From NCBI GenBank assembly GCA_026388715.1, contig JAPLJF010000006.1, forward strand, positions 1-64,000: 64,000 nt of DNA, written 5' to 3'. Positions 3,469 through 59,796 of this stretch are shown piece by piece. Numbering within the stretch: position 1 is the first letter of the stretch; each line of letters starts with the position of its first letter. A model generated the notes under the pieces. The model was given only the letters and a program-made list of their open reading frames with translations, was not told the DNA's origin and made no database searches. This stretch comes from Deltaproteobacteria bacterium. Lineage in GTDB: Bacteria > Desulfobacterota > Desulfobulbia > Desulfobulbales > Desulfocapsaceae. The translations under genes were made by a program, and so were the position numbers.

Positions 3469-3529
3469 ATATGGATATAAACCGTTTTAAAAAAATAATG
3501 ACGCCATCTGAATGGAAAAAACGGCACAG

Positions 3530-3581
3530 GGAGCCGTAACGAAATGATTAAAAATACACTGATTATTTCGCAACGGCTCCT
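3530..3581 (+). repeat. PRE palindromic repeat copy 1 (right half clear), overlapping lptC start
   Basis: The left arm GGAGCCGTAACGAAAT (3530-3545) pairs with ATTTCGCAACGGCTCC (3565-3580) with one mismatch. The sequence before it (about 3475-3529, including AAACCGTTTTAAA and AAACGGCACA) resembles a degraded left half of the same element. The ATG of lptC begins inside the left arm, and the GGAG of that arm lies ten bases before it. Confidence 0.85.
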
Positions 3582-4155
3582 CAATAGCAGAAACATCATC
3601 TGGCTGGTGCCCTTCGCCCTGCTGCTCACCTTTCCTCTGTGGCGAATACCACTGGCCGCCTTTCTCGCTCCCCGTGGCGGGTATGACCCTGCCTTAGCCC
3701 AGAATCGACCGGATGCCCATGATTTTACCATGAATACCGTTCATATCACCCAGAGCCATAATGGAAAGATGACCCTTGATCTCATTGCCACACGGGCCAT
3801 GACCGGTAAAACGACCAATGAATTCAAGATGGAAGATGTCAACGCCACCATCATCACCGAACAAGGCGAACGCACTTACGTCACCGCCAAGAAGGGTATA
3901 TTCGACAAGGGCTCCAGCCAGCTCACCCTCATTGATGATGTGGTGATCAAAAAGCCCAAGGATAAATACGAAATTTACACCGACCTGCTTCACTATAACG
4001 ACAAAACCAAAATCGCCCACTGCCCCGGGCCCACCAGACTCATTGGCGACAAAGTATCCATTAAAGGCGGCAGCCTCAAGTATAACACTCTCACCAGCAG
4101 CTACGATATTGGCGGCCGGGTCTATTGCAAACTCTCTGAATTTGTCCACCCCTGA
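3544..4155 (+). CDS. lptC: LPS export periplasmic protein LptC
   Basis: LptC is the bitopic inner-membrane component that passes LPS from LptBFG to LptA. The protein (203 aa) has one N-terminal membrane segment (about residues 20-42, WLVPFALLLTFPLW) and a periplasmic beta-jellyroll-like domain typical of the LptC/OstA superfamily (repeated pattern around TNEFKMEDVNATI and VTAKKGIFDKGSSQLTL). Its first 13 or so codons are read from a PRE repeat, giving an unusual polar leader MIKNTLIISQRLL. lptA and lptB, often adjacent, are absent: the next gene is trmO on the opposite strand. Confidence 0.85.
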   Translation: MIKNTLIISQRLLNSRNIIWLVPFALLLTFPLWRIPLAAFLAPRGGYDPALAQNRPDAHDFTMNTVHITQSHNGKMTLDLIATRAMTGKTTNEFKMEDVNATIITEQGERTYVTAKKGIFDKGSSQLTLIDDVVIKKPKDKYEIYTDLLHYNDKTKIAHCPGPTRLIGDKVSIKGGSLKYNTLTSSYDIGGRVYCKLSEFVHP

Positions 4156-4175
4156 TCGATCATCCCTCTCCGGCC

Positions 4176-4898
4176 TCACTCTTCCCCGATCAACAGCACC
4201 AGAAAACGCTCCCCAAGGGCCTGCCAGCGGACATTTACATCCCAAAGCGTCATCCCGTACTCGCGCGTCTGATGACGCTGACTTGCTGGCCTTGGATCCT
4301 GCCCCAGGGTCTCGGCAATCAATGACCTGAGCCTGCGGCCGGTACGCTGTTCATACTCGCTGCAAGATTGCGCCGCCGCCTCGGCAAACACCACCTCCCG
4401 CCGCACAGACTCAGGTGGGGGAATAAAACCATCACTGGCCCCGGGTACACTGTCACTGTAAGGGATATAAGGCTTGATATCAACAACCGGTGTTTTATCG
4501 AGCAGATCGATCTCAGCAATCTCGAGAAACAGCCCCTTTTTTTCTTTCCTGATTCCAGTGAGCCGGACCACAGAAAGCCCCAGATGATTAGGCCGGTGAG
4601 GACTGCGACTGGCAAAAATCCCTACCCGCTTCTGCCCGCCCAGCCAAGGAGGCCGGACCGTGGGACGCCACCCCTCTGCCACCGCCTCATGGAACAGAAA
4701 CTGGATCCAGATATGCGAAAAGACATCCAGCCCCTTGATCATCTCTTCCCGGTTCCACGGCGGAAACAACTCAAGACGGCCACTGCTGCTTTTGACCAGA
4801 CCCGGCTGCCGGGGAATGCCGAATTTCTCCGGATAACAGGAATGAATGATGCCAATCGAAGATATTGGAGATATGATTTGCGAAGAGAATTCAATCAT
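4176..4898 (-). CDS. trmO: tRNA (N6-threonylcarbamoyladenosine-37-N6)-methyltransferase, TrmO/TsaA family
   Basis: TrmO uses S-adenosylmethionine to methylate t6A at position 37 of some tRNAs. The N-terminal TsaA domain shows IGIIHSCYPEKFGIPRQPGL, GLDVFSHIWIQFLFHE and the strongly conserved VGIFASRSPHRPNHLGLS and DLLDKTPVVDIKPYIPYSD blocks. At 240 residues it matches two-domain YaeB-like members. It converges with lptC (20 bases between stops) and stands alone on the minus strand. No clear Shine-Dalgarno site precedes the start. Confidence 0.9.
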   Translation of the reverse strand: MIEFSSQIISPISSIGIIHSCYPEKFGIPRQPGLVKSSSGRLELFPPWNREEMIKGLDVFSHIWIQFLFHEAVAEGWRPTVRPPWLGGQKRVGIFASRSPHRPNHLGLSVVRLTGIRKEKKGLFLEIAEIDLLDKTPVVDIKPYIPYSDSVPGASDGFIPPPESVRREVVFAEAAAQSCSEYEQRTGRRLRSLIAETLGQDPRPASQRHQTREYGMTLWDVNVRWQALGERFLVLLIGEE

Positions 4899-5002
4899 TG
4901 AAACAAAGACAGGAAACAGGGTATTCTGATTAAGGAGCTTTCGAGCAAGGGATCATCTTTCATGAACACCTCAAAAAATAACCGCTTTTACGGGACTTCA
5001 CC

Positions 5003-5815
5003 ATGGATTTTCTCAATCTTACTGATAAATGTTTTGTCATCTTCGGGCTGGCCAATAAAAAATCCATCGCCTGCGCCATTGCCAAGACCCTGCTTGCCAA
5101 TGGCGCGCGGGTGATCCATGTGGTCCGCTCCCCGGCCCGCCAGGAGACAGCGCGCAGCCTGTTTCCGGGATGCCCGGTTTTTATCTGCGATGTGGCAGAT
5201 GAGGACAATATTATCCGCGTCCGGGATGAGATTGCCGCGGAAATTCAGGCCGAGACGGGCAGGCGCATTGACGGCCTGGTGCACTCCATTGCCTATGCCA
5301 ATTACTCTGAGGGCATGCAACCCTTTCATGCCACCTTGAAAAAGGATTTTCTCCAGGCCATGGACATCTCCTGTTTTTCCCTGATTTCCATCTGCAACCA
5401 TTTTCAGGGACTGCTGACCGCCAATGCCTCAGTGGTCACTATCTCCATCTCAACCACCCGGATGGCGGCCGAAAACTATGGCTACATGGCGCCGATCAAG
5501 GCCGCACTCGACTCCTCTCTCTGCTTTTTGGCCAAGAGCTTTTCCGCTTTTTCAAACGTCCGCTTCAACGCCATTGCCCCAGGGTTGCTCAAGACCTCCG
5601 CCTCAGCCGGGATTCCTGGCTATGTGGACAGTTATCTCTTTGCCGAAAAGGCCACCCTGAGAAAAAAGGCGCTGACCACCCAAGAGGCCGCAGATACCGC
5701 CGTCTTTCTTCTCTCGGAACGTTCCTCAGGCATCACCGCCCAAACCCTGGTGATTGACGCGGGCATGGCCATAAACTATTTTGACCGGGAAATAGTCACC
5801 AAGGCCATCAGCTGA
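5003..5815 (+). CDS. fabI: Enoyl-[acyl-carrier-protein] reductase, FabI-type SDR
   Basis: Probably reduces enoyl-ACP with NAD(P)H in fatty-acid elongation. The 270-residue protein has the FabI-style cofactor loop [16 protein letters not shown] rather than the TGxxxGIG of classical SDRs, the LVHSIAYAN segment, and a Tyr-X6-Lys catalytic pair (YGYMAPIK) as in FabI. The end, DAGMAINYF, also fits. It is somewhat divergent and could act on another acyl carrier substrate. It is monocistronic between trmO and an FAD oxidoreductase. A second enoyl reductase of the FabK/nitronate monooxygenase superfamily may be encoded at 55993-56979. Confidence 0.82.
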
Positions 5816-6003
5816 TTCCTGGCATTCGATTTTTCAAGACACCCATCTATCAAAGAAAGTAACTGCACAGGTGATAGACAAAATGCCGGGATTTTTGATA
5901 TGCTGACTTGATCCGAACGTTGAGTGATGATTGATCGATTTCAGTCTTCAAGCTAAAAACCTGAGTAACTACCAAAGAAAAACCAGAGAGGAAAAACCGG
6001 CAA

Positions 6004-7110
6004 ATGGGAAAGCATCTAATTCTGGCAGGCGGCGGACATGCCCACATGGTTACCCTGGCCAACATCAGGCTGTTGTGCGATCTGGGACATACCGTAACAG
6101 TCATCGGCCCTTCAGACTATCATTACTATTCCGGCATGGGCCCCGGTATGCTGGGTGCGACCTACGAACCCAATGATATTCGTTTTGCCACCAGGCAGAC
6201 CGTTGAGGAACAGGGCGGCACCTTTATCCGCGACTCCATTGCCGGTATCGACCCTGCCGGCCGCCGCCTGCACCTGGCATCCGGCCGCAGCGTCGGGTAT
6301 GATGTGGTCTCCTTCAATACCGGCAGCAGCATCGAACTCCCGGAGATTGTCGGCGACGCCTCCACCATCTATACCGTGAAACCCATTGAACGCCTGTATG
6401 AGGCCCGGCAGCAGATCAAGAAAAAGGCGGAACAGCAATCAGTGACTATTGCCGTTATCGGTGGGGGGCCAGCCGGGGCCGAGGTGGCGGGCAATATCCG
6501 GCAGCTAGTCAGCGGAACCGGGCACAAAACAAAGGTATCGCTCTTTGCCGGCCACCGGTTCATGGCCAGATCTCCGGAAAATGTGCACCGCAAGAGCCGA
6601 CAACTGCTGGAGGAAAATGGGGTGGTCATCCATGAATATGGCTATCTGAAGAGCATCCAGGACAACATCCTCATCTTTGATTGCGGGATCACGCAACATG
6701 CCGATTTTATTATCCTGGCAACTGGGGTCCACCCCTCTTCCTTTTTTCGTCAGGCCGGGATCGCTGTTGGCCCGGATGGCGGCCTGCTGGTCAATCGCTA
6801 TCTGCAAAGCCCTGACTATCCGGAGATCTTTGGCGGCGGAGACTGCATCTCTTTTCAACCGCAGCACCTGGACAAGGTCGGTGTCTATGCAGTCAGAGAA
6901 AATCCCATCCTTTTTCATAACCTGAAGGCATATCTTCAGGGTGAGGAGCTCATGCCCTTTGATCCCGGCGGCGACTACCTTCTGATTTTTAATCTGGGAA
7001 ACGGCCAAGGGGTGTTATGTAAAAAATGGCTATTCTTTACCGGAAAGCTGGCCTTCTTGATCAAGGACTGGATTGATAAAAAGTTTATGGCAAAATTTCA
7101 GAAGGGATAA
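6004..7110 (+). CDS. FAD-dependent pyridine nucleotide-disulfide oxidoreductase family protein (NDH-2-like)
   Basis: A 368-residue flavoprotein with two dinucleotide folds: the N-terminal FAD motif LILAGGGHAHMVTL and the second NAD(P)H motif VIGGGPAGAEVAG near residue 153, followed by a C-terminal FAD contact GGGDCISF. The GGGHAH start and the lack of a CxxC redox pair resemble type II NADH dehydrogenases and the oxidoreductase module found fused to, or next to, SelD in some bacteria. No selD gene is nearby. The natural electron acceptor is unknown; a quinone is a reasonable inference. The C-terminus (WLFFTGKLAFLIKDWIDKKF) is amphipathic and could touch the membrane. Confidence 0.78.
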   Translation: MGKHLILAGGGHAHMVTLANIRLLCDLGHTVTVIGPSDYHYYSGMGPGMLGATYEPNDIRFATRQTVEEQGGTFIRDSIAGIDPAGRRLHLASGRSVGYDVVSFNTGSSIELPEIVGDASTIYTVKPIERLYEARQQIKKKAEQQSVTIAVIGGGPAGAEVAGNIRQLVSGTGHKTKVSLFAGHRFMARSPENVHRKSRQLLEENGVVIHEYGYLKSIQDNILIFDCGITQHADFIILATGVHPSSFFRQAGIAVGPDGGLLVNRYLQSPDYPEIFGGGDCISFQPQHLDKVGVYAVRENPILFHNLKAYLQGEELMPFDPGGDYLLIFNLGNGQGVLCKKWLFFTGKLAFLIKDWIDKKFMAKFQKG

Positions 7111-7149
7111 CACCTCTATTGAGCCACGAGCTGCACGAGAAGACCCAGC

Positions 7150-7818: not shown

Positions 7819-7840
7819 GATCTGCTTCCCCCTTAGGAGT

Positions 7841-7943
7841 TAGGAGCCGTTAGGAAATAACCATTGTTTTCTTGACCATTTCGTTACGGCTCCTTATGCC
7901 GTTTTTGACATCCAGACGACTATTTTAGGTTTACAGCGGCTCA
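7841..7943 (-). repeat. PRE palindromic repeat copy 2 (pstB1-phoU1 gap)
   Basis: Read on the minus strand the element starts with TGAGCCGCTGT, whose TGA is the stop codon of pstB1, passes through ACGGCATAAGGAGCCGTAAC and closes with TTTCCTAACGGCTCCTAA. The right-hand hairpin arms are 7841-7858 and 7879-7896. It lies between two cotranscribed genes and points with transcription. Confidence 0.88.
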
Positions 7944-8726
7944 ACCGAAACGACCGGTTATATAATCTTCCGTCTGTTTTTCCCGCGGCTTGGTAAATAT
8001 CTTCTTGGTGGCATTGAACTCCACCAGCCGCCCTTCATAAAAAAAGGCGGTATAATCGGAGATACGCGCGGCCTGCTGCATATTATGAGTGACGATAACA
8101 ATGGTATATTCATTGCGCAATTCGCCAATCAGATCTTCGATGCGAATGGTTGACTTCGGATCAAGGGCGGAGGCCGGTTCATCCATGAGCAGGATATCAG
8201 GCCCCACGGCCAGGGCCCTGGCAATACAGAGACGTTGCTGCTGACCGCCTGACAGTCCCAGAGCATTGGTCTCCAGCCGATCCTTCACCTCATTCCACAG
8301 GGCGGAACGGATCAGACTCTGCTCCACAATCTCGGCAAGTTGCTGCCGGTCATGGGTCCCATGGATACGGGGACCGTAGGCCACGTTGTCAAAAATGGAC
8401 TTGGGAAAGGGGTTTGATTTCTGAAAGACCATCCCCACCTTCCGGCGCAATCGCACAACATTACTGCCACTTTCATAGATATCCTCACCGTTTATAAGCA
8501 CCTCTCCTTCAATCCGGGTCCCGGTAATGGTATCATTCATCCGGTTGAAGATGCGCAGAAAGGTTGATTTGCCACAGCCGGAAGGGCCGATAAAGGCGGT
8601 GACCCGGCGGCCGGGAATATCCATGCTGATATCAAACAAGGCCTGAGTGGCCCCGTAAAAAAAGTTCACCCTGCTGGCAGTGATGACATGGTTAGTATCT
8701 GCGGGAAAAGGATAAGTTTCTACCAT
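7941..8726 (-). CDS. pstB: Phosphate ABC transporter ATP-binding protein PstB (island 1)
   Basis: ATPase that powers high-affinity phosphate import. The 261-residue protein has Walker [10 protein letters not shown] (about residue 52), the ABC signature LSGGQQQR, Walker [14 protein letters not shown] and the H-loop [14 protein letters not shown], all typical of PstB. It overlaps pstA by seven bases. The stop codon TGA is contributed by a PRE repeat. A second PstB lies at 38973-39761. Confidence 0.96.
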
Positions 8727-10431: not shown

Positions 10432-10436
10432 AAGCG

Positions 10437-13540: not shown

Positions 13541-13644
13541 TTAGGGGCCGTTAAGAAATGACCACTCTCTTTTTCTATTTCTTTACGGCCCCTTATGCCG
13601 TTAACGATATTGAAATGTAGTAATTATTTTTGAACGACGGCTTA
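13541..13644 (-). repeat. PRE palindromic repeat copy 3 (between corA and DUF47 gene)
   Basis: On the minus strand it runs from TTAAGCCGTCGTTCAAAAAT, through TAACGGCATAAGGGGCCGTA, to TCTTAACGGCCCCTAA. The right-hand hairpin arms (13541-13555 and 13581-13595) carry compensating changes: GGGGCC opposite GGCCCC where other copies have GGAGCC/GGCTCC. That preserves pairing and suggests a selected or recently copied hairpin. The rest of the gap (13645-13810) shows nothing I recognise. Confidence 0.87.
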
Positions 13645-17078: not shown

Positions 17079-17234
17079 ACCGTTGTTCAGAAATAACCGT
17101 AACATTAAAATACCGTGATCGGCATAAAGAGCGGGTCGCTCTTTATCCGTCCAGAAGCGAGTGACACCAAGCCATCCTTGGCTGTCGTAACGAAATGGCG
17201 AAAAAGGGAATGGTTATTTCATAACGGCTCCTAA
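17079..17234 (+). repeat. PRE palindromic repeat copy 4, extended form
   Basis: The left end ACCGTTGTTCAGAAATAACC and the right end GGTTATTTCATAACGGCTCC are inverted partners. Between the internal GGCATAAAGAGC and CGTAACGAAATGG this copy carries about 55 extra bases (17133-17187) that begin GGTCGCTC and contain their own hairpin (CCAAGCCATCCTTGG). Copy 7 has a related insert at the same place. It lies between the divergent nfeD and cysC genes. Confidence 0.85.
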
Positions 17235-20640: not shown

Positions 20641-20823
20641 AAATTATTGTAGTTGATTATTTTTCTATCTGGTTCTGACTCTATTCGATTCATATCTAGA
20701 GAAAAGATAGAACTGTTTGACTCTCCAGTCCATTTAACCGGGCGGGATGGGTCTTGGATGCGACCTGGGATCTCAGGAGGATTCTGGAATCGTAACAATT
20801 CAATAAAAGTAGGAGGAAAGAAG

Positions 20824-22386
20824 ATGGTTAAAAAATTTTCCATGCTGGCCCTTGCCGGCCTGATCGCCCTGCCTGTACTTGCATCTGCAGGTGTTGGTCC
20901 CCAAGCCAGCGATCTTGATCGCAAAATCCAGGATCTGAGCTCACAACTTGACCAGCTGAAGGCACAAATGGCTGCCCAGGCAGAAGCCAACGCTGCAACC
21001 AAAGCCAAAGTAGGCGCTCTGGACAATACCGTTGCCGGTTTCAGTGATCGTGCCTCGGATTGGGATCTGGCAGCTCGCGTTAAACTGTACGGCGATTACC
21101 GTGCGCGGTTGGATTACTATAGCGCCAAAGGTGTTGACAGGGCATGGCTGAACACTCCTTTTGGACTGATGCCGGGATTCAATGGAACAAAGTACGAAAA
21201 TGATACTGAATGGACCAATCGTTTTCGTCTGAACATGCGGGTGGGCATCACTGAGAACGTAGAATTCAAGGGCCGTCTTGCCATGTACAAGGTTTGGGGC
21301 ATGGAGTCGGCAGCAACTGATGCTACTAACACCGCCTTCCCTCAGTTTGACGGCAACAGTACCCGTACCCCTTCTGACAATGCCCTGCGCGTTGATCGTG
21401 CCTATGTCAACTTTAACAATATCGGTGGCGCCCCCATATGGTTCTCCATTGGTCGTCGTCCGACCACCGATGGTAATCCTGGCAATCTGCGCATGAACCT
21501 TAGTGAGCGTGGTGGCACCCCACTGATCATGGATTATGCCTTTGACGGAATTTCCATGGGCTATGCCTATAAATGGGGTGGAGATCTGGGAGCCGGTCGC
21601 GTTCGTGTCTGTTACGGACGTGGTTTTGAAGATGGCCTCCAGGTAGATGGCGCTCCAATGAATGATACGGATTTCATAGGGATGAGCTGGGATATCCTGC
21701 AGAAGGGAGATCGTTTCCTCTATGCTCAGTCTTTCATAGCGGCTAATGTCTTTAATTATCCCAACTTCCAGGATCCTATTATTGATGCAAATTTCGGCAC
21801 AATGTCCGGAATGGGAACCAGACAGAATGTGGGTAACATCGATCTTAGCGGCGCCATGTATATGGACAAGATCGCCGGCCTGAACTACTTCATTGCCGGT
21901 GGCTGGAGCCGTACCGATCCTAACGAAATAGGTATGCTCAATGACTATGCTGGCATGGCTATGGGTCTGGTGGGTACGAATCAAGACAGCGAAAACGGCT
22001 ACATGGCCCATGTTGGTGTCCGTTATGATATCGATCCAATCGGCCTCAAACTGGGAGCTGAGTGGAACCACGGTTCCGAGAACTGGATCGCCTTCACTCC
22101 AGGACATGATGATCTCTATCAGTCCAAGATTGCCGCTCGCGGTAATGTCTACGAGGTCTATGGCATCTATGACCTGCCCACGGGCAAGGCCATATCTAAA
22201 TATGCCAAGACCTTTATGCGTCTCGGTTATCAGCGTTACGAGTACGATTATGCCGGTTCCGGCGATTGGAACATGAAGCCCTACGACCTGAGTAATGACA
22301 TGGATCTGTTCAAGCTGAAGATGATGGGACAGAATCCCGTCGAGAGTGCTGATCAGGTTTATATGACCCTTGAGGCAACATTCTAA
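20824..22386 (+). CDS. Outer-membrane porin-like protein, DUF3373 type
   Basis: A 520-residue exported protein: signal peptide (residues 1-21, cleaved after LPVLASA), a short coiled coil (DLDRKIQDLSSQLDQLKAQMAAQ) such as anchors porins to peptidoglycan, then a long beta-rich region ending in the outer-membrane-type terminal TLEATF. The blocks RFRLNMRVGITENVEFKGRLAMYKVWG and SIGRRPTTDGNPGNLR recall the DUF3373 family seen in Desulfobacterota and Geobacter relatives. The start at 20824 has AGGAGGAAAG just upstream. Followed by a PRE repeat and a strong terminator, so monocistronic. Confidence 0.78.
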   Translation: MVKKFSMLALAGLIALPVLASAGVGPQASDLDRKIQDLSSQLDQLKAQMAAQAEANAATKAKVGALDNTVAGFSDRASDWDLAARVKLYGDYRARLDYYSAKGVDRAWLNTPFGLMPGFNGTKYENDTEWTNRFRLNMRVGITENVEFKGRLAMYKVWGMESAATDATNTAFPQFDGNSTRTPSDNALRVDRAYVNFNNIGGAPIWFSIGRRPTTDGNPGNLRMNLSERGGTPLIMDYAFDGISMGYAYKWGGDLGAGRVRVCYGRGFEDGLQVDGAPMNDTDFIGMSWDILQKGDRFLYAQSFIAANVFNYPNFQDPIIDANFGTMSGMGTRQNVGNIDLSGAMYMDKIAGLNYFIAGGWSRTDPNEIGMLNDYAGMAMGLVGTNQDSENGYMAHVGVRYDIDPIGLKLGAEWNHGSENWIAFTPGHDDLYQSKIAARGNVYEVYGIYDLPTGKAISKYAKTFMRLGYQRYEYDYAGSGDWNMKPYDLSNDMDLFKLKMMGQNPVESADQVYMTLEATF

Positions 22387-22387: not shown

Positions 22388-22490
22388 TCGTTGTTCAAGG
22401 ATAACGGAAATTTTATAATGATGTGAACAACACATAAGGTGCCGTAAAAGAATAACCAGGCAAGACAGGTCATTCTCTAACGGCACCTAA
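22388..22490 (+). repeat. PRE palindromic repeat copy 5 (after DUF3373-like porin)
   Basis: It begins two bases after the porin stop codon with ATCGTTGTTCAAGGATAACG and closes with CTCTAACGGCACCTAA. The right-hand hairpin pairs AGGTGCCGT (22437-22445) with ACGGCACCT (22480-22488). The GGTGCC/GGCACC substitution keeps the pairing intact relative to other copies. Confidence 0.85.
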
Positions 22491-26298: not shown

Positions 26299-26310
26299 TT
26301 TTTTAGGTAG

Positions 26311-26413
26311 ATAGACTGAAGGTTGAAGACTGAAGGTTAAATGCTGAAAAACTGATTACATGATGACGAACTATGGGTCACTTCAGCCTTCAGCCTTTTA
26401 CCTTCAGCCTTTA
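26311..26413. repeat. Heptamer inverted repeat, copy 1
   Basis: A left arm built of 7-base units (AGACTGA, AGGTTGA, AGACTGA, AGGTTAA) faces a right arm of CTTCAGC units across about 45 bases. Copies 2 and 3 lie at 36521-36622 and 43635-43736. Here it occupies the gap between the Cys-rich protein gene and phoH. Confidence 0.75.
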
Positions 26414-27745: not shown

Positions 27746-28842
27746 AGATTAAGCCAGGTAGAATTTTTATTGAGCAGTTCACAATCGTCGGCACGGACGA
27801 CTACCATATTTTCAAGCCGGACACCACCCCAACCGGGAAGGTAAATACCGGGCTCAACCGTCACCACCATCCCGGCCTGCAACTTCTTTCCATTCCGGGA
27901 AGAAAGGCGCGGTTCTTCATGGACGGCCAGCCCCACGCCATGCCCCAAAGAGTGACCGAAGGCCTGACCGTACCCGGCTGCAGTGATGATATCACGGGCG
28001 ACTCTATCGACCTTGGCCGCCGCGACTCCCTCCCGAATCGCCTCAATAGCTGCAAGCTGGGCCCGGCGCACCAGCCGGTGGATGGCAAGAAAACGATCGT
28101 CCGGCTCGCCAAGCACAAAGGTACGGGTCATATCAGAACAATAACCATCAAGGATCAACCCCATATCAATCATCACGGGCTGGTTGCCCTCGATAACCAC
28201 CGGGCCAGGAACCGCGTGCGGTAAGGCGCTGTTGCTGCCCGTTGCGACAATCGTGTCAAAGCTCGGGGACTGGGCACCCATCCGGCGCATGGTGGACTCA
28301 ACGACAAGGGCAATCTCTCGTTCAGTCTGGCCGGGACAGATGGAGCCGTACACCTCGTCAAAAACCTGTTCATTCAGGTCAACCGAGGCCCGCATCTTGG
28401 CTATCTCATCCTCATCCTTGATTGCCCGAAACTTTTCCACAAGATCTGTGGTCGGAACAACCCGCACACCTATCTTTCCGCCCAGGGTATTCAGCTTTTC
28501 GGCAAAAGAATGGAGGGTATAATGACTTTCAAAACCAAGAGTGCGGATCCCCAGATCCGGCAGCATCTCCCGCAATAAAAGCAACAGACCCTTGGGATAA
28601 AGTACGACATGAAGAAAACCGGCCTCAGCCTCGGCCTGCAGCTTGAAACGAAAGTCGGTCAGAAGCCAGAAATCACCCTTGGCCGGAATGAGCAACACCC
28701 CCGCGGTCTCAGCAATACTGTGATCGAGCGCCGAATAACCGCTCAGATACCGCCTGTTCTCCGGCTGACTGATCAGCAGGCCATCAAGCTTTTTCCGGCG
28801 CAATGCCGCCTGAATCTTATCTATTCGTTGCAGATAGCGCAT
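27742..28842 (-). CDS. pepP: Xaa-Pro aminopeptidase (M24 family)
   Basis: A 366-residue metallopeptidase with the creatinase-like N-terminal domain (LISQPENRRYLSGYSALDHSI) and the pita-bread catalytic domain. Metal ligands are visible in MIDMGLILDGYCSDMTRTF (two Asp), GHSLGHGVGLAVHEEP (His), VTVEPGIYLPGWGGVRLEN (two Glu). Its ATG starts on the very last base of a PRE repeat, so no normal Shine-Dalgarno site precedes it. It is the middle gene of an operon with the upstream DUF6657-like gene and downstream phoH. Confidence 0.92.
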   Translation of the reverse strand: MRYLQRIDKIQAALRRKKLDGLLISQPENRRYLSGYSALDHSIAETAGVLLIPAKGDFWLLTDFRFKLQAEAEAGFLHVVLYPKGLLLLLREMLPDLGIRTLGFESHYTLHSFAEKLNTLGGKIGVRVVPTTDLVEKFRAIKDEDEIAKMRASVDLNEQVFDEVYGSICPGQTEREIALVVESTMRRMGAQSPSFDTIVATGSNSALPHAVPGPVVIEGNQPVMIDMGLILDGYCSDMTRTFVLGEPDDRFLAIHRLVRRAQLAAIEAIREGVAAAKVDRVARDIITAAGYGQAFGHSLGHGVGLAVHEEPRLSSRNGKKLQAGMVVTVEPGIYLPGWGGVRLENMVVVRADDCELLNKNSTWLNL

Positions 28843-28962
28843 TAGGAGCCGTTACGAAATACCATCGCCGTTAAGACTGCTACATTTTTTCACCATTTCG
28901 TTATGGCTCCTTATGACGGTTACAATATTTCATTGTTATGGTTATTCTTGAACGACGGCTCA
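28842..28962 (-). repeat. PRE palindromic repeat copy 6, exactly filling an operon gap
   Basis: On the minus strand the copy starts TGAGCCGTCGTTCAAGAATA, where TGA is the stop codon of the upstream gene, and ends AACGGCTCCTAA, whose last A is the first base of the pepP ATG. The whole intergenic region is thus one 121-base element. Internal ATAAGGAGCCATAACGAAAT pairs with the right end. Confidence 0.92.
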
Positions 28963-29550
28963 GGCAAAACGCTGCAACAAGATCTCTTTTCGCTGATCAA
29001 GGGCCTGATTGTATTGCTGGTTCAGCTCCGCCTTCATCCTCGTCCACTCCTTCTGAAACATGGGATGCATCGACGGATCCATGGACATTCCGCCCCCGGC
29101 AAGAGCTCCTTGCTGGCCACCAAGTTTTTGATCAAGCTGGGCGCGCACGGCATCTTCAAGCTGTTTTCTGATCTGCTCTAGATGCTGATTATACTGTTCA
29201 AGGATCTGTTTCAACTCGGCGCAGATGGCAACCATATCCCCTGCCGATTGCTCCATCTCCACAAGACCATGCATGGCCCGAAGACTCGTGGCCATCAGGG
29301 CCTCATCACGCGGCAGGACAATATTGCGCAACAAGGCCTGGGCCATCCCCCTGCGCACCGCCATCTGCTCGGTGCCCTTCTGCCCGGCAAGTACCTGCCC
29401 GAGATCCTCCAAGGCAAGGCCGATATATTCAGCGGCCAGACGCATCCCTGTGCGTTCTGCTTCCTGAGAATCAGGCTGACCAACCGCGCGGGCGGCCATA
29501 CGGGCGGCCCGCTCCATAACCATATCCATGGTGCTTTTTATCTCTGCCAT
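28960..29550 (-). CDS. Conserved helical protein of unknown function (DUF6657-like)
   Basis: A 196-residue soluble, strongly helical protein. It begins MAEIKSTMDMVMERAARMAA and has a long Gln/Glu-rich coiled coil (CAELKQILEQYNQHLEQIRKQLEDAVRAQLDQK), a short Gly/Met linker, and a C-terminal helix. The N-terminal string matches my recollection of a DUF6657 family found in Desulfobacterota, though I cannot verify this. It heads an operon with pepP and phoH, from which it is separated by a PRE repeat supplying its stop codon. Confidence 0.75.
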   Translation of the reverse strand: MAEIKSTMDMVMERAARMAARAVGQPDSQEAERTGMRLAAEYIGLALEDLGQVLAGQKGTEQMAVRRGMAQALLRNIVLPRDEALMATSLRAMHGLVEMEQSAGDMVAICAELKQILEQYNQHLEQIRKQLEDAVRAQLDQKLGGQQGALAGGGMSMDPSMHPMFQKEWTRMKAELNQQYNQALDQRKEILLQRFA

Positions 29551-29760: not shown

Positions 29761-29924
29761 AGCCGTTATTCAAAGATAACCGCAACATTGAAATACCGTG
29801 CCCAGCATAAGGAGCCGGTCGCTCCTCCAACCATCTCTTTGGAGCAAACGACACTATGCCATTCATCGCCATCATAACGAAAGAGTCAGGAATATAATGA
29901 TTATTTCGTAACGATTTCCAAGAA
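29761..29924 (+). repeat. PRE palindromic repeat copy 7, extended form
   Basis: The left half AGCCGTTATTCAAAGATAAC and the right end TGATTATTTCGTAACG are recognisable, but the last bases (ATTTCC) have diverged. After GCATAAGGAGCC it carries about 55 extra bases starting GGTCGCTCC with an inner CTCC/GGAG hairpin, comparable in place and content to the insert of copy 4. It lies upstream of rpsA, downstream of a divergent gene start. Confidence 0.82.
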
Positions 29925-32418: not shown

Positions 32419-32472
32419 TTAGAGACCGTTCTCGCCAATCATATGGCCATGTTATTTATTTACAACGGCTCA
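32419..32472 (-). repeat. PRE palindromic repeat copy 8, short degenerate form
   Basis: On the minus strand it begins TGAGCCGTTGTAAATAAATA, where TGA is the stop codon of the Sua5/YciO gene, and ends GAACGGTCTCTAA. The central part of the element is missing, leaving only the two terminal arms. It is the least certain copy. Confidence 0.55.
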
Positions 32473-33084
32473 TCGCAGAAATGGGGCAATATCACCCTTC
32501 CCTTCGCGCAATATCTCAGGATGATCTCCGGTCAGATCGATAAGTGAGGATGGATCTGGATAGACCGGTCCACCGTCGATAATGATCTCGACCCTGTTCC
32601 CCAGAATCATCTCGATTTCATAGGCCTCAGTCGGCACAGGATGTTCACTTTCCACCGGGATACTGGTGTTGACAATTGGATTGCCAAGGGTTTCAAGAAG
32701 CAACAGACAGATAGGATTGGCTGGAACCCGGATACCGACTGTTTTCTGCTTTGTCGCCATGATCCTGGGCACGATCTTACTTCCGGGCAGGACAAAGGTA
32801 TAGGCCCCCGGCAGATTTTTTTTCATCAGCCGATAGGCCGTATTTGACACATGGGCATATTCGCTGATATTTTTCAGACTGGGACACATGAAAGAAAAGG
32901 GCTTGCCCTCGGGTCTTTTCTTTATCTGCATCAATCGTTTAATCGCCTTTTGATGAAACAGATCACAACCGACACCATAACCGGTATCCGTTGGATAACA
33001 GATAATCGCCCCGGCTTGCAGGTGCTCAACAACCTGCTGGATCAGGCGCAGTTGGGGATTCTCGGGATTGATATTTATAAGCAT
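32470..33084 (-). CDS. Sua5/YciO/YrdC-family protein (YciO-like)
   Basis: A 204-residue YrdC-fold protein, starting at ATG 33084 with AAAGGAATCC immediately upstream. Motifs are IICYPTDTGYGVGCDLF, the KKRPEGKPFSFMCPSLKNISEYA block and TVGIRVPANPICLLLLETLGNPIVNTS. YrdC/Sua5 make threonylcarbamoyl-AMP for tRNA t6A, while the YciO branch is a close relative with uncertain or weak activity; the KPFS segment and length here look YciO-like. Its stop codon is shared with a degenerate PRE repeat. Confidence 0.85.
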   Translation of the reverse strand: MLININPENPQLRLIQQVVEHLQAGAIICYPTDTGYGVGCDLFHQKAIKRLMQIKKRPEGKPFSFMCPSLKNISEYAHVSNTAYRLMKKNLPGAYTFVLPGSKIVPRIMATKQKTVGIRVPANPICLLLLETLGNPIVNTSIPVESEHPVPTEAYEIEMILGNRVEIIIDGGPVYPDPSSLIDLTGDHPEILREGKGDIAPFLR

Positions 33085-33241
33085 GGATTCCTTTCTTCTC
33101 TTTCTACAAGGACAACACAAGACAAAAATGGGTCAGTCCCGAAAAAGGTTTAAGCTTTTATCTTGAAATGCTACACTGTTATTCAGGAGACAGAATGCTT
33201 TTTTAGCGGATACTCACTCCTGTCTCATTAATCCCCTGTAT

Positions 33242-34786: not shown

Positions 34787-34796
34787 TTACCTGTTG

Positions 34797-34927
34797 GGTC
34801 TCGCAAAAAGTCGTCACACCGGTGGAAACCGACCGGTGTCCAGCATCTTCGCAACTGTTCGAAAAGACTGGATTCCGGCCTGCGCCGGAATGACGAAAAA
34901 AGCTAAATTTCGACTTTTTACAGGACC
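34797..34927. repeat. Terminal-inverted-repeat element between guaB and guaA
   Basis: The ends GGTCTCGCAAAAAGTCG (34797-34813) and CGACTTTTTACAGGACC (34911-34927) are imperfect inverted repeats of 17 bases. Inside are two hairpins: CACCGGT-GGAAACCG-ACCGGTGT and ATTCCGGCC-TG-CGCCGGAAT. The ATTCCGG...CCGGAATGACG core resembles a dispersed element familiar from other Desulfobacterota and Geobacter genomes. It may be a non-autonomous mobile element. Confidence 0.7.
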
Positions 34928-34969
34928 ATCAATACTTACTTAACTTTTAACTTTCAACTTTCCCTTATC

Positions 34970-36520: not shown

Positions 36521-36622
36521 ATAGACTGAGAAGGTTGAAGACCGAAGGCTGAAGGGGTCAGGAACAAAGAGAGCATGAGCATAGAAGACTTCAGCCTTCA
36601 GTCAAAAAAGCCAGCCTTCATC
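36521..36622. repeat. Heptamer inverted repeat, copy 2
   Basis: The left arm has units AGACTGA, AAGGTTGA, AGACCGA and AGGCTGA; the right arm has TTCAGCC and TTCAGTC units, with about 40 unrelated bases between. It lies between guaA and the NYN-domain gene and has the same architecture as copies at 26311 and 43635. Confidence 0.72.
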
Positions 36623-43634: not shown

Positions 43635-43736
43635 GGAAGGTTGAAGATTAAAGGCTGAAGACTGAAGGCTATAAAACTGTCGGGCGCATCGCATATTTCA
43701 TAATGCTTTTCCTTCAGCCTTCAGCCTTCAGCCTAT
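43635..43736. repeat. Heptamer inverted repeat, copy 3
   Basis: Left arm units AAGGTTG, AAGATTA, AAGGCTG, AAGACTG, AAGGCTA face right arm TTCAGCC units repeated four times, about 40 bases apart. It fills the gap between pstS2 and pstC2, inside the operon. In mRNA the arms could form a hairpin and tune expression of the binding protein relative to the permease. Confidence 0.78.
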
Positions 43737-45077: not shown

Positions 45078-45180
45078 AGCCGTTGGAAAAATTAATGCCG
45101 TCATCGGGATGGCAAAAACGGAAAAAGATGCTGTAACGAAAGAGTCAAAGACGCAATAGTTACTTCATAATAGCATCTAA
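45078..45180 (+). repeat. PRE palindromic repeat copy 9 (porin leader)
   Basis: It begins AGCCGTTGGAAAAATTAATG, contains AGATGCTGTAACGAAAGAGT and ends TTCATAATAGCATCTAA. The right-hand hairpin uses AGATGCT/AGCATCT in place of GGAGCC/GGCTCC, again with paired changes. It lies inside the predicted 5' leader of the Pho-controlled porin, 25 bases before the start codon. Confidence 0.78.
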
Positions 45181-52546: not shown

Positions 52547-52564
52547 TTGTTAGGATAGGGTTAG
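52547..52564 (-). promoter_or_regulatory. PhoB box upstream of phoR (two half-sites)
   Basis: On the minus strand CTAACCC and CTAACAA lie 11 bases apart, about 60 bases before the phoR start. It matches the half-site (CTAACNN) and spacing of the arrays at 44827-44855 and 44909-44973. No further half-site flanks it, so it is weaker. Confidence 0.58.
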
Positions 52565-52654
52565 CAAAGGAAAATAAATTTTCTCCGCTTTTTCTGAAAC
52601 TGCTCAGCGCGGCAATCGGAGGCCCGGTTACCGCGCTGGCAGATACATCTTTGC

Positions 52655-54439: not shown

Positions 54440-54465
54440 GAGGTTCTCAAATATAAGTAAAAGTT

Positions 54466-55728: not shown

Positions 55729-55992
55729 AGGCTGATCCTCCACATAAAAAAAGCTGAAATTAACCGCTGAAATTAACAGTAATTGCAGGAAAAAGTCAAG
55801 GATAGTGCGGCCGGCGCTGGAAGATTCAGCCCTTTTCCCGGCAATCAGAAGAGAATAATGTGTTTTTACTCCATTCACATCGCTCTTTCCTGCACTTTCC
55901 AGCGGCGATGCTTGACAAAATATGGTAAGCAGGGCATTATCTTTTTTTGTTCATCAGACCATTTCATTTGGCACAGGAGTTTTTTTACGAAC

Positions 55993-56979
55993 ATGAAGTT
56001 ACCACCACTGAAAATTGCAAATCTCACCGCCACAGTTCCCCTGATCCAGGGCGGTATGTCTATCCGTGTTTCCACCGCCGCCCTGGCCGCACCTGTTGCC
56101 AATTGTGGCGGCATCGGGGTTATCGGCGGCTCCGGCATCCCCACCGAAGAACTGAAGGCTGATATCCTCAAGGCCAAGGCCAATACTGATGGCATTGTGG
56201 CGGTCAACATCATGTATGCCATGAAGAATTTTTATAATCTGGTGATGAGCTCCATCGAGGTCGGTGTTGACATGATCATCACCGGCGCCGGATTTTCCCG
56301 CGATATCTTCAAGATTGGCCGCGACCACAATACCCCTATTGTCATGATCGTCTCTTCACCTGGTATCGCCAAACTTGCTGAAAAACTGGGCGCGGCAGCA
56401 ATTATTGTCGAGGCCTGCGAGGCAGGCGGACATCTGGGCACCGACCGCCCTTTGCGTGAGATCTTTCCCCCGATCCGGGACGTGATCACCAAGGTTCCCC
56501 TCATTGCCGCGGGTGGCATCACCAATGGCTACGAAATGGCGGAGATGATGGACAAATATGGCGCTGACGGCATCCAGATCGCCTCCCGTTTTGTTTTGAG
56601 CGAGGAGTGCGATGTAGCGGACAGCTTCAAGCAGACCTTTCTCAATGCCAACAAAGAGGACATTGTCCTCGTCTCATCACCCGTTGGCATGCCCGGCCGG
56701 GCGATCAATACCCCCTTTATTCAGGCCATGGCCAGAGGTGAAGACGTCTCCACCAAAAGATGCGATTACAAATGCCTGAAAAAATGCGACCACCATTACT
56801 GCATCAGCGAACGTCTCATGATGGCCAGAAACGGAAACGTCAAAGAAGGACTGGTTTTTTCCGGGGCCAATACCTACAAGATGAAAGAGATCCTGCCTGT
56901 TGCCGAAATATTTCGGCAATTTGTGACCCAGGCCGAATCCGTGTATAAAGAAGGGCGCGGCTTCGCCCCTGTGGCCTGA
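55993..56979 (+). CDS. Nitronate monooxygenase / 2-nitropropane dioxygenase-family flavoprotein
   Basis: A 328-residue FMN TIM-barrel enzyme: PLIQGGMSIRVSTAALAAPVANCGGIGVIGGSG, an EACEAGGHLG motif, LIAAGGITNGYEMAEM and GADGIQIASRFVLS. The C-terminal segment has a cysteine cluster (CDYKCLKKCDHHYC) not needed for classical NMO, maybe metal binding. The superfamily also contains FabK enoyl-ACP reductases, so it could act in fatty-acid synthesis alongside the FabI-type protein. The start at ATG 55993 has AGGAG 13 bases upstream, a little far. It sits just before pcnB. Confidence 0.82.
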   Translation: MKLPPLKIANLTATVPLIQGGMSIRVSTAALAAPVANCGGIGVIGGSGIPTEELKADILKAKANTDGIVAVNIMYAMKNFYNLVMSSIEVGVDMIITGAGFSRDIFKIGRDHNTPIVMIVSSPGIAKLAEKLGAAAIIVEACEAGGHLGTDRPLREIFPPIRDVITKVPLIAAGGITNGYEMAEMMDKYGADGIQIASRFVLSEECDVADSFKQTFLNANKEDIVLVSSPVGMPGRAINTPFIQAMARGEDVSTKRCDYKCLKKCDHHYCISERLMMARNGNVKEGLVFSGANTYKMKEILPVAEIFRQFVTQAESVYKEGRGFAPVA

Positions 56980-56998
56980 GGAAACTCTACAATATTCT

Positions 56999-58417
56999 AT
57001 GTCCAGTCGGCAGAACAAACCCAAGCAAAGAGAAGAGACATTATTTCTTGCGCCCCCCCGCATCCTTTCACCCGATGAACATCCCATCACCCCGGGGATG
57101 ATTGACGCGGACGCCCTCCTGGTGCTGCGCAAACTGCATGACGCCGGATTTCACGGTTATCTGGTTGGCGGCGGGGTTCGGGATCTCTACCTTGGCAAGA
57201 CCCCTAAAGATTTCGATATCAGTACCGATGCCCACCCCGGACAGATCCGCAAGATCTTCCGTAACAGCATGACCATCGGCCGTCGTTTCCGGCTGGTTCA
57301 AATCTTCTTTCGCAATGGAAAGATCATCGAGGTCTCCACCCTGCGCTCTCTCGATGAACATGATCTGGATGGTCCGGAGACCGTGCTGGCCCCTAATAAT
57401 ACCTTTGGCAACCTGGAAGAAGATGCCCAACGCCGGGATCTGACCATCAACTCGCTGTTCTACGAGATAGAACAGAACACCATCCTTGATTACGTGGGCG
57501 GCATTGAAGACCTGAACCACGCAATCGTCCGCATCGTAGGCGATCCCGACAAGCGAATCAGCCGCGATCCGGTGCGCATGCTGCGCGCCATTCGCCATGC
57601 CGCCCGCATTAACTTCACCATCGAGCCACAAAGCTGGCAGGCAATCTGCAGACACCACCACGAGCTTACCCTCTGCCCCCCATCCCGTCTGCGGGACGAG
57701 CTTTACAAAGATCTGCACAGCGGTTCGCTCCTGGACTGGTTTCATCTCGCTGCTGATTCAGGTCTGTTTGGCAGTATCCTGGTTCTCTATAAGGAAATCC
57801 TGGGCAAGGGATCGAACTCTGGCCCCGGCTGCAAAGAACAACTGACCAGGCTGTTTACCGTCATTGACCGCGTCACCACAAAAATGACAGAAGAACAGAT
57901 AGGGCAACGACTGCCCAACGAATTTCTCCTCGCCCTGCTGCTGCTTCCCTGGGCCAACACCCAGTTTGACTTCATCAGACAGGAACTGCAAGGCTCTGCC
58001 GCCTATCAATTCAGCAAACAACTGCGGGCCAGTCTGGATCTGGAAATCGGCACTCAACTCAATCTGCCCCGTACCACCCGTCAGGAAATCGTCACCCTCA
58101 TTGGCAACCTTCCCCTCTTCCTCCAACACGAGGGAAAAGGCTCATGGCCGCAGTGGCTGACCCGGAAAAGCTACTTTAAAAACTGTCTGCTCTTTTATCG
58201 TTTCTACCTGGAATCCACCGGTGGTCTGCCTGTGCCGGAAGGCCTGCTTGACATTGCACCCCCACCCATCCCAGTGGCAAAGCCACGTTCCGGATCCAGC
58301 GGCAAACGTCCTTCCCGTCCAGGCATTATCGGGACTGCCTTTTCCTCGGACGCCCCCGGCGGCATTTTCGGCTTCAAAAAAAAATCTTCTTCCAAGGCCA
58401 ATAACAGCAAGTCATAA
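56999..58417 (+). CDS. pcnB: Poly(A) polymerase I-type nucleotidyltransferase
   Basis: A 472-residue class II nucleotidyltransferase. The catalytic motif GGGVRDLYLGKTPKDFDIST (about residues 57-77) and the next block RRFRLVQIFFRNGKIIEVSTLR fit PcnB/CCA-adding enzymes; RRDLTINSLFY and DPDKRISRDPVRMLRAIRHAARINF are the shared helical blocks. Length and the basic, Ser/Pro/Lys-rich C-terminal tail suggest PcnB rather than a CCA-adding enzyme. It follows the NMO gene by 19 bases. Confidence 0.9.
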   Translation: MSSRQNKPKQREETLFLAPPRILSPDEHPITPGMIDADALLVLRKLHDAGFHGYLVGGGVRDLYLGKTPKDFDISTDAHPGQIRKIFRNSMTIGRRFRLVQIFFRNGKIIEVSTLRSLDEHDLDGPETVLAPNNTFGNLEEDAQRRDLTINSLFYEIEQNTILDYVGGIEDLNHAIVRIVGDPDKRISRDPVRMLRAIRHAARINFTIEPQSWQAICRHHHELTLCPPSRLRDELYKDLHSGSLLDWFHLAADSGLFGSILVLYKEILGKGSNSGPGCKEQLTRLFTVIDRVTTKMTEEQIGQRLPNEFLLALLLLPWANTQFDFIRQELQGSAAYQFSKQLRASLDLEIGTQLNLPRTTRQEIVTLIGNLPLFLQHEGKGSWPQWLTRKSYFKNCLLFYRFYLESTGGLPVPEGLLDIAPPPIPVAKPRSGSSGKRPSRPGIIGTAFSSDAPGGIFGFKKKSSSKANNSKS

Positions 58418-58518
58418 TAATCCCCCTCCTCTCTTCCTCTCCCCTCCCTTAGCAATCTATTCGAACACATTGATCAACATTAGTGATCGGCAAACACCAA
58501 AAAAAACACAACAGTCCC

Positions 58519-58548
58519 TTGACAAAGCCATCCACGAACCGCTACCAT
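58519..58548 (+). promoter_or_regulatory. Candidate promoter of the hydrogenase operon
   Basis: TTGACA (58519-58524) and TACCAT (58543-58548) are separated by 18 bases, 51 bases before the hydA ATG. The -10 is weak, so control by an activator is possible. No sigma-54 element is visible. Confidence 0.4.
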
Positions 58549-58599
58549 CAACAATATTGATTGTATCCTGTTTTCCCGTTTCAATAAGAGGAGGATGAT

Positions 58600-59694
58600 A
58601 TGACAGACACAGCACACAGCACCGATCTGGACCTACAAGTCAACCGGCGCGGTTTCCTCAAGGGCTGTACCATAGTGGCGGCAGCGCTTGGCATCTCTGA
58701 AGCCATGATCCCCAAACTGGTAGAAGCGGCCACCTCTGCACAAAGGCCGCCGGTGATCTGGCTGCATTTTCAGGAATGCACCGGCTGTACCGAAAGTCTG
58801 CTGCGGGCCTCTCATCCCGATATTGGCCGCCTGATCCTGGAGATCATCTCCCTTGATTACCATGAAACGGTGATGGCGGCAGCCGGTCACCAGGCGGAAA
58901 AAAGCCTCCATGACACCCTTGACAAATATGCGGGGAAATTCCTCTGCGTGGTTGAGGGCGGCATCCCCACCAAGGACAAGGGCATCTACTGCAAGATCGC
59001 GGGCCGCACCGCCGTTGACATCCTGGCGGAGGTCGCCCCCAAGGCCGCGGCCATTATTGCCATCGGCTCCTGCGCCACCTTCGGGGGCATTCAGGCCGCA
59101 GCCCCCAATCCCACCGGGTCCAAAGGGGTGCGGGATCTGGTCTCGGGGACACCGGTGATCAACATCCCTGGCTGTCCACCAAATCCCATTTCATTCCTCG
59201 GCACCGTCCTCCACTACCTGACCTTCAATCGCCTGCCGGTAACCGACAATCTTGGCCGGCCTCTTTTTGCATACGGCCGCCGGATTCATGACCATTGCGA
59301 ACGCCGGGCTCACTTTGATGAAGGCCGATTTGCCGAACAGTTTGGTGATTTTGGCCACCGAAACGGCTATTGCCTCTACAAGCTTGGCTGCAAGGGGCCG
59401 GAAACCTTTTCCAACTGCCCATCAGCCCGCTTTAATGATGTCGATGTCTGGCCGGTCAGCGTCGGCCATGGCTGCATAGGCTGCACCGAACCCAATTTTT
59501 GGGACACCATGACCCCCTTCTATGAACGACTGCCAAATGTCAAGATCCCTGGAATCGGCGGGACTACCGTTGACACCGCCGGCAAAACGATCCTTGGCGT
59601 GGCCGCTGCGGCCGTTGGCATCCATGCCGCCATCGGTATCGGTAAGAAAGTAATCAAAGGCTGCGGCTGCAAGGGCGAAAAGAAAGAAAGCTGA
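58600..59694 (+). CDS. hydA: [NiFe] hydrogenase small subunit (membrane-bound, Tat exported)
   Basis: Electron-transfer subunit of 364 residues with a Tat signal (RRGFLK, residues 16-21) that exports the folded heterodimer. The proximal cluster ligands C60 and C63 lie in ECTGCTES; GSCATFGG and GCPPNP supply the others. Gly at the positions where O2-tolerant enzymes have extra cysteines indicates the standard four-Cys cluster. The medial/distal ligands are in DHCERRAHF, YCLYKLGCKG, NCPSARFNDVDVW and HGCIGCTEP. A C-terminal helix (ILGVAAAAVGIHAAIGI) anchors it in the membrane. The stop TGA belongs to a PRE repeat. Confidence 0.95.
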   Translation: MTDTAHSTDLDLQVNRRGFLKGCTIVAAALGISEAMIPKLVEAATSAQRPPVIWLHFQECTGCTESLLRASHPDIGRLILEIISLDYHETVMAAAGHQAEKSLHDTLDKYAGKFLCVVEGGIPTKDKGIYCKIAGRTAVDILAEVAPKAAAIIAIGSCATFGGIQAAAPNPTGSKGVRDLVSGTPVINIPGCPPNPISFLGTVLHYLTFNRLPVTDNLGRPLFAYGRRIHDHCERRAHFDEGRFAEQFGDFGHRNGYCLYKLGCKGPETFSNCPSARFNDVDVWPVSVGHGCIGCTEPNFWDTMTPFYERLPNVKIPGIGGTTVDTAGKTILGVAAAAVGIHAAIGIGKKVIKGCGCKGEKKES

Positions 59695-59796
59695 GCCGTT
59701 GTCAAAAGATAACTGGAACATTGCCGTACTATAACGGCATAAGGGACCGTAAAGAAATAGATAAAAATATACTGGTTATATCTTAACGGTCCCTAA
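59692..59796 (+). repeat. PRE palindromic repeat copy 10 (hydA-hydB gap)
   Basis: It starts TGAGCCGTTGTCAAAAGATA, with TGA as the hydA stop, includes TAACGGCATAAGGGACCGTA and ends TCTTAACGGTCCCTAA. The right hairpin has GGGACC/GGTCCC, again compensated. It occupies most of the 143-base gap between the two subunits; the hydB ribosome-binding site follows 30 bases after it. Confidence 0.92.

What the first reader, a model, noticed from the sequence alone, without database searches (positions are those of the whole stretch)
3475..59796. A dispersed palindromic intergenic repeat family (PRE) with nine clear copies and one degenerate copy
Copies at 3530-3581, 7841-7943, 13541-13644, 17079-17234, 22388-22490, 28842-28962, 29761-29924, 45078-45180, 59692-59796, plus a short degenerate one at 32419-32472, share terminal inverted arms (GAGCCGTT...AAATAACC and its complement) and a second internal GAGCCGT motif that pairs with the right end. 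Density is about one per 7 kb and all are intergenic or touch gene ends. Right-hand hairpins differ in sequence but keep pairing (GGAGCC/GGCTCC, GGGGCC/GGCCCC, GGTGCC/GGCACC, GGGACC/GGTCCC), which points to RNA structure or recent copying of paired arms. Resembles ERIC, RUP or Nemis elements in style, but I cannot name it.
Basis: seen in the sequence. Interest (0 to 1): 0.8.

Follow-up and report, generated by a model that had tools for sequence, protein, structure and literature searches.

The report
Hitchhiking mini-transposons of Desulfobacterota
The repeat is a family of roughly 100-base transposon remnants, present in well over a hundred copies in this genome and scattered through many related bacteria, whose ends match a little-studied transposon family (ISAzo13) that probably moves them.

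Summary
The nine clear copies and the remnant are real, and a covariance model of the shared right-hand hairpin finds at least 148 copies in the 2.97-Mb genome. It also hits 17 of 17 genus genomes and 81 of 257 class genomes. Paired arms covary beyond shuffles. The element is a MITE: a body of about 100 nt with inverted ends (20 of 27 in register) and no transposase gene, usually flanked by TAA. Seven clean insertions have empty sites in relatives. A 1.2-kb IS with a PF07592 (ISAzo13) transposase carries ends identical over their first 18 nt. Four more ISAzo13-type IS of the class match at 20-22 of 27, and four match less well. IS right flanks are TWA in 18 of 18 readable copies. The own genome shows no such transposase, so its copies look like orphans; IS and repeat do not co-occur significantly over the class (p 0.12). 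Left ends sit on gene stop codons more often than control stops do (16 of 58 against 6%). In 15 orthologous pairs stems diverge nearly as fast as loops, so a conserved RNA function is not supported. The kind is known; an ISAzo13-type MITE was not found in the papers searched.

The parts
3481..3580 (+). MITE copy, 100 nt; left flank TAA 3478-3480, right flank TCA
7843..7940 (-). MITE copy, 98 nt; left flank TGA 7941-7943 is the stop codon of the ABC-transporter ORF 7941-8726(-), right flank TAA
13544..13641 (-). MITE copy, 98 nt; TAA on both sides; orthologous copy in G008 (L108)
17079..17231 (+). long MITE copy (153 nt) with ~52-nt segment inside the right hairpin; left flank TTG, right TAA
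22387..22487 (+). MITE copy, 101 nt; left TAA 22384-22386 is the stop codon of the DUF3373 ORF 20653-22386(+)
28845..28959 (-). MITE copy, 115 nt (16-nt insertion); left TGA 28960-28962 is the stop codon of ORF 28960-29550(-); empty site in several relatives
29762..29918 (+). long MITE copy (157 nt); flanked by CAA on both sides; empty site with a single CAA in three relatives
32419..32472 (-). remnant: left module only, TGA (stop codon of Sua5 ORF 32470-33120(-)) to TAA
   Evidence: sequence inspection
45079..45177 (+). MITE copy, 99 nt; TAA on both sides; orthologous long-form copy in G009 (L107)
59695..59793 (+). MITE copy, 99 nt; left TGA 59692-59694 is the stop codon of the hydrogenase small-subunit ORF 58600-59694(+); empty site in G002

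Best explanation
The repeats are a family of MITEs (non-autonomous transposons). A typical unit is a ~100-nt body flanked by TAA. Its left end (GCCGTTGTAAAAAAATAAC...) and right end (...GTTATTTCGTAACGGCTCC) are inverted repeats in the same register as the ends of ISAzo13-type insertion sequences. Shown here: copy number, empty sites, end identity with some ISAzo13 IS, no detectable transposase of that type in the own genome, and enrichment at stop codons. Inferred: an ISAzo13-type DDE transposase, resident earlier or supplied in trans, binds the ends and inserts the unit at TWA/TNA targets, duplicating 3 bp. Insertion into a stop codon leaves a stop in place, so such insertions survive. The copies then decay almost neutrally. 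Arm covariation mainly reflects subfamilies whose two ends must match each other, plus perhaps arm-to-arm correction in hairpins.
For: At least 148 copies in the own genome and hits in 17 of 17 genus genomes. Seven clean distinct insertions with empty sites: 4 TAA/TAA from TAA, 1 CAA/CAA from CAA, 2 TGA/TAA from TAA or TGA. 47 of 81 distinct full-length copies found by regex are 106 nt including both triplets. L130:189-1397 is a 1.2-kb IS bounded by the repeat's end at both sides (one was the search key; inverted repeat of 32 nt with 3 mismatches, 5 of the 32 being flank) and holds PF07592 at E 4.8e-80. In-register end identity: L130 24 and 22, G244 22, G027 21 and 21, G051 20, G248 20 of 27; 14-15 is the 99.9% level for one random 27-mer, which does not allow for choosing the place. 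With the place searched over whole loci, shuffles reach at most 17-19 of 26, while L130 (24, 22), G051 (20) and G244 (21) exceed that and G027 (18 against 17) barely, each just outside the transposase frame. G129, in the window genome's family, has IS ending ...TTAACGGCTCC|TWA. IS right flanks are TWA in 18 of 18 (10 TAA, 8 TTA). Minimal palindromes of the two ends alone exist (L147, L152, L162).
Against: No ISAzo13 transposase in the own genome (94% complete), and in only 2 of 17 genus genomes, where no end within 5 mismatches was found. Only one IS (L130, in a MAG labelled Elusimicrobia) has near-exact ends; G129 (19), G067 (18 and 16) and G166 (18) match less well, and L281, L259, L268 and L270 show no end above shuffles. 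21 of 25 named repeat-bearing genomes have no PF07592. Over the class, the repeat is in 12 of 26 genomes with PF07592 and 69 of 231 without: not significant, p 0.12 (genomes are not independent). G067, rich in ISAzo13, has no repeat. The flanks are no clean duplication: right TAA 79 of 100, left TAA 44 of 100; of 56 copies with left not TAA, 43 have right TAA and 3 are concordant. Right TTA is rare (3 of 100) although the IS uses TTA about as often as TAA. Complete IS show unlike flanks in 3 of 4.
Confidence: 0.73

Rival explanations
1. A REP/REPIN-like or IS200/IS605-type element: hairpins moved as single strands by a Y1 (RAYT) transposase, inserted 3' of a TNA target, the right TAA being the element's own cleavage site rather than a duplicated target.
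For: Right TAA is much more constant than left (79 against 44 of 100) and fixed in orientation; at 59692 the empty target is TGA, the left flank TGA and the right TAA. Each hairpin is followed by TAA. Y1 genes occur in 17 of 17 genus genomes.
Against: No repeat hairpin in any of 20 Y1 loci read (a loose 15-base motif with 3 mismatches was met in two, L244 and L257); the own genome holds only a 65-aa Y1 fragment; the ends match ISAzo13 IS ends; the 29762 copy has CAA at left, right and empty site.
Confidence: 0.14
2. A selected structured RNA or DNA element (3'-UTR hairpin, RNA stabiliser or protein-binding palindrome) kept by the host.
For: Strong covariation in the right hairpin and in the extra hairpin of the C variant (13 double-change cells against a shuffle mean of 2.0, maximum 7 of 2000, with 19 cells changed otherwise); enrichment at stop codons.
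Against: In 15 orthologous pairs stems changed at 45 of 508, loops 37 of 283 (p 0.07), left module 76 of 628, flanks 1054 of 11356 sites, although the relatives' copies were picked for high hairpin scores; presence varies between close relatives; no Rfam family in the window.
Confidence: 0.08
3. A MITE of an IS5-type (ISL2/IS1031, TNA target) or IS630-type element rather than ISAzo13.
For: A TNA target is recalled for some IS5 groups; the style is that of ERIC and RUP.
Against: The only long element found with these ends carries PF07592, and ends of several ISAzo13 IS match in register. IS5 and IS630 transposases were not searched for.
Confidence: 0.05

Closest known systems
ISAzo13-family insertion sequences (PF07592, Rhodopirellula-type DDE transposase)
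   Same: Terminal inverted repeats (20-24 of 27 in register in five of nine IS compared) and TWA flanks
   Different: The repeat has no transposase and is ~100 nt long; its ends are asymmetric (left GCCGTTG, right GGAGCCG) and its right flank is mostly TAA, hardly ever TTA
Chunjie MITE of Geobacter uraniireducens (passages of PMC10969869 seen)
   Same: MITE with conserved inverted ends and direct repeats, mostly intergenic, dozens of copies
   Different: 178-235 bp against ~100 nt; its sequence was not compared here
ERIC, RUP, Correia/Nemis repeats
   Same: Small palindromic intergenic MITEs with size variants (recalled)
   Different: Recalled as IS630-type with TA duplication; here TAA/TNA flanks and ISAzo13-type ends
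REP/REPIN with RAYT (Y1) transposases
   Same: Intergenic hairpins, doublets and compound forms (recalled)
   Different: No link to Y1 genes found here

Membership tests
MITE | short multi-copy element without transposase gene | tested here: met
   ~100 nt body, at least 148 copies
MITE | terminal inverted repeats | tested here: met
   left and right ends 20 of 27 identical in register (subtype B), 18 of 27 (subtype A); inner bases covary in 47 full-length copies
MITE | mobility: filled and empty orthologous sites | tested here: met
   seven clean distinct insertions
MITE | identical target duplication on both sides | tested here: inconclusive
   TAA/TAA in 36 of 100 own copies, CAA/CAA, TCA/TCA and TTG/TTG once each; the rest differ
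ISAzo13-derived MITE | autonomous-type element with the same ends | tested here: met
   L130 189-1397, PF07592 E 4.8e-80, reading frame in two pieces
ISAzo13-derived MITE | such an element in the same genome or genus | tested here: not met
   0 in own genome; 2 of 17 genus genomes have PF07592 pieces, ends not matching; G129 of the same family shares the terminal 9 nt
ISAzo13-derived MITE | IS and MITE co-occur across genomes | tested here: inconclusive
   12 of 26 against 69 of 231, p 0.12
ISAzo13-derived MITE | transposase acts on the repeat's ends | not testable with these tools
   needs an in vitro or in vivo assay
REP/REPIN (RAYT) | repeat lies near a Y1/RAYT gene | tested here: not met
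   0 R1 hits in 20 Y1 loci
ERIC/RUP/Nemis (IS630-type) | TA target duplication (recalled) | tested here: not met
   empty sites show TAA, CAA or TGA
Rfam structured RNA | match to a curated family | tested here: not met
   0 matches in the window at gathering scores

The most novel reading that the evidence does not exclude
The family is a structure-preserving mobile element: its hairpins are actively kept paired, by selection on a folded single strand during transposition or by arm-to-arm correction. Its orientation-fixed TAA makes it a stop-codon-docking module that adds a 3'-end hairpin to transcripts across Desulfobacterota.
Probability: 0.12. Interest if true: 0.65.

Novelty: new member of a known kind. 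Interest (0 to 1): 0.42.

Why it matters
It names a repeat hit in 81 of 257 genomes of its class and probably ties it to ISAzo13, a family named in only 10 papers of the library searched. One paper holds both ISAzo13 and MITE, and its two MITE mentions are a general remark and a reference. It gives a ready test case for whether ISAzo13 transposases mobilise short elements in trans, and for how a mobile element can land harmlessly on stop codons.

Tried and rejected
Y1/RAYT link: tested, none found. The genus's own ISAzo13 pieces as parents: ends do not match. Plasmid and phage records: no match to one 106-nt copy; viral contigs 0 for the exact right-end pattern. Rfam: no family in the window. 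Conserved RNA function: 15 orthologous pairs, weak or no constraint. Short C-terminal transposase pieces in G067, G129 and G248 looked like deletion derivatives, but all except L437 end at or near contig ends, so they are read as collapsed IS copies and used only for right flanks. Of 31 right-end motif hits (of 237 in all loci then held, some overlapping) lacking the internal arm, most are long or minimal forms or unclear; I followed three: L130 is an IS; L176 and L189 showed no obvious transposase in their ORF lists, judged by eye; the others were not followed. Literature searches: ISAzo13 (45), MITE with Desulfobacterota (46), Chunjie (69), bacterial MITEs (70), Zator (76), ISAzo13 with MITE (77), Desulfocapsaceae with intergenic repeat (78). 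Seen: passages of PMC9208149, PMC5718144 and PMC10969869 (74, outline 75); other papers only as listings.
Full report
What was checked. A plain pattern with up to 3 mismatches gave 78 matches in the own genome against 0 for the pattern read backwards. R1 gave 148 places at E <= 0.01, a lower bound because only 150 of 1247 candidates were scored. The tenth copy (32419-32472) is a left-half remnant.

Kin. A genus relative (G009) has a contig of 80,685 bases with a repeat at 4814-4881; a public contig of that length with a match at 4815-4836 is titled Desulfocapsaceae bacterium (JAUSAB010000048.1). So the genus is probably one of Desulfocapsaceae; the own genome's name is not known.

Anatomy. Of the 148 places, 140 could be read with flanks from stretches held; eight were missed. 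By simple rules 93 are ordinary, 7 are long forms, 22 have an extra hairpin (type C; 24 by the looser rule), 15 have no recognisable left end and 3 no clear right end. The ordinary body is close to 100 nt. Among 81 distinct full-length copies found by a regex that demands T[AG]A ends in the loci held then, 47 are 106 nt including both triplets. Left end GCCGTTGTAAAAAAATAACATGGCCAT and right end (read inward) GGAGCCGTTACGAAATAACATGGCCAT agree at 20 of 27 positions in register; in subtype A, with other inner bases, at 18. The long form (window 17079 and 29762) has about 52 nt inserted there; its core also occurs in genus relatives and in loci of the KA05, UBA2276 and UBA2213 MAGs.

Movement. All-against-all comparison of the window with 19 stretches from 10 genus genomes gave 69 gap events, 39 with repeat motifs in the gap. 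Some of these are partial deletions or unclear; seven distinct insertions are clean. They are window 28845, 29762 and 59695; L112 14186 with its ortholog in L116; L106 4815; L116 15520 with L119 889; and L124 11690 (details). Four have TAA on both sides and TAA at the empty site, one has CAA in all three, and two have TGA left and TAA right with TAA or TGA at the empty site. So the element is mobile and targets TAA-like triplets. Against a simple 3-bp duplication: in 100 own copies with a readable left end, the right triplet is TAA in 79 and the left in only 44 (p 6e-7); TTA is rare on the right (3). R1 includes the right TAA and so favours it somewhat, but of the 30 copies fetched by the pattern, which does not include it, 25 also have right TAA.

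The parent. One stretch, L130 (a MAG labelled Elusimicrobia), carries two such ends facing each other 1.2 kb apart, identical to the repeat's right end over 18 nt. Between them lies a transposase in two pieces, PF07592 DDE_Tnp_ISAZ013, E 4.8e-80 and 6.3e-26.

Other ISAzo13 elements. PF07592 is met in 26 of 257 class genomes. Ends of nine IS were compared in register with the repeat's ends. Five reach 20 or more of 27 (L130 24 and 22, G244 22, G027 21 and 21, G051 20, G248 20); four reach less (G129 19, G067 18 and 16 for two IS, G166 18). One random 27-mer reaches 14-15 at the 99.9% level, but the places were chosen, so this flatters. When the best place is searched over the whole locus, shuffles reach at most 17-19 of 26; L130 (24 and 22), G051 (20) and G244 (21) exceed this, G027 (18 against 17) barely, and L263 (17), L266, L281, L259, L268 and L270 do not (12 loci examined). 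In L130, G051, G244 and G027 the end lies just outside the transposase frame or its stop. The nine terminal bases of the G129 IS equal the repeat's right end. Eighteen IS right ends with a readable flank are all followed by TWA: 6 in G244, 7 in G067, 3 in G129, 2 in G248; 10 TAA, 8 TTA. G263 and G244 are the same genome by contig coordinates and are counted once. Four complete IS have flanks TAA/TAA (G027), TTA/TAA (L130), TTA/TGA (G067) and, less surely, CTA/TTA (G166).

Orphans. The own genome has no PF07592 match, 15 of 17 genus genomes (own included) have none, and the pieces in G009 and G008 do not have these ends. Of 25 named repeat-bearing genomes, 4 have PF07592. Over the class, repeat-positive genomes are 12 of 26 with PF07592 and 69 of 231 without, p 0.12, not significant. 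That is compatible with elements that outlive their mobiliser but gives no support. In the class-wide R1 search only 19 candidates per genome were scored.

Stop codons. Of 100 own copies, 58 have a stop triplet at the left end, and in 16 of these 58 it closes a frame open for at least 80 codons; 1586 of 25893 control stops in the same loci do (p 3e-7). In the window five of ten copies sit so, after an ABC transporter, DUF3373, DUF6657, Sua5 and a hydrogenase small subunit. Because a TAA target regenerates a stop, such insertions should be harmless. This explains survival; it does not show targeting.

Structure. The right hairpin covaries (7 of 16 pairs with double changes, 24 cells, shuffle mean 4.8), and so does the extra hairpin of type C (13 double-change cells in 24 copies, 19 changed otherwise, shuffle mean 2.0, maximum 7 of 2000). 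Of three window copies folded as DNA, two lie more than 6 standard deviations below shuffles and one 2.8. But orthologous copies (15 pairs over 13 own copies, G000 against G004/G008/G009) changed at 45 of 508 stem sites, 37 of 283 loop sites (p 0.07), 76 of 628 left-module sites and 1054 of 11356 flank sites, the flanks including coding sequence. Post-insertion constraint is weak at most. Covariation is best read as subfamilies with matched arms; hairpin-templated correction is possible and untested.

Verdict. A MITE family, probably of ISAzo13 type, not described as such in the papers searched. Ordinary in kind, useful in identity.

Noticed in passing
own genome, 24 copies, e.g. L029 1420-1550, L044, L046: Compound variant (type C): TTGTATGTTATCTGCCAGACGCC, a hairpin with copy-specific but complementary arms, then GGCATAAGGTGCCG and the right hairpin; it often follows a truncated ordinary copy.
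   Followed up: partly
window 17079-17231, 29762-29918; L129, L136, L149, L159 and others of the KA05 MAG; L141; L189: A ~52-nt segment (GGTCGCTC...GACACTGGGCCATCCCTGGCC) recurs at the same place in the hairpin in the genus, and its core occurs in MAGs of other groups.
   Followed up: partly
own copies against IS copies: The repeat's right flank is TAA and hardly ever TTA, while the IS uses TAA and TTA about equally; unexplained orientation preference.
   Followed up: partly
L292 587-615 (Rhodococcus opacus plasmid, ISRop2): Upstream of the ISRop2 transposase lies GTGACTGTAAGGTAATAACATGG, resembling the same end design far outside Desulfobacterota; its second end was not sought.
   Followed up: no
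window 26304-26348, 36530-36560, 43636-43666: Another short dispersed repeat, GAAGGTTGAAGACTGAAGG (family D5).
   Followed up: no
window ~34790-34945: Intergenic block with palindrome GGATTCCGGCCTGCGCCGGAATGACG, different in G004.
   Followed up: no
window 5855-5977: A ~123-bp stretch absent from G008 that is not this repeat.
   Followed up: no
genus genomes; L251: Y1/RAYT-like genes in 17 of 17 genus genomes; L251 holds two similar ones in a row; their own repeat partners were not sought.
   Followed up: no
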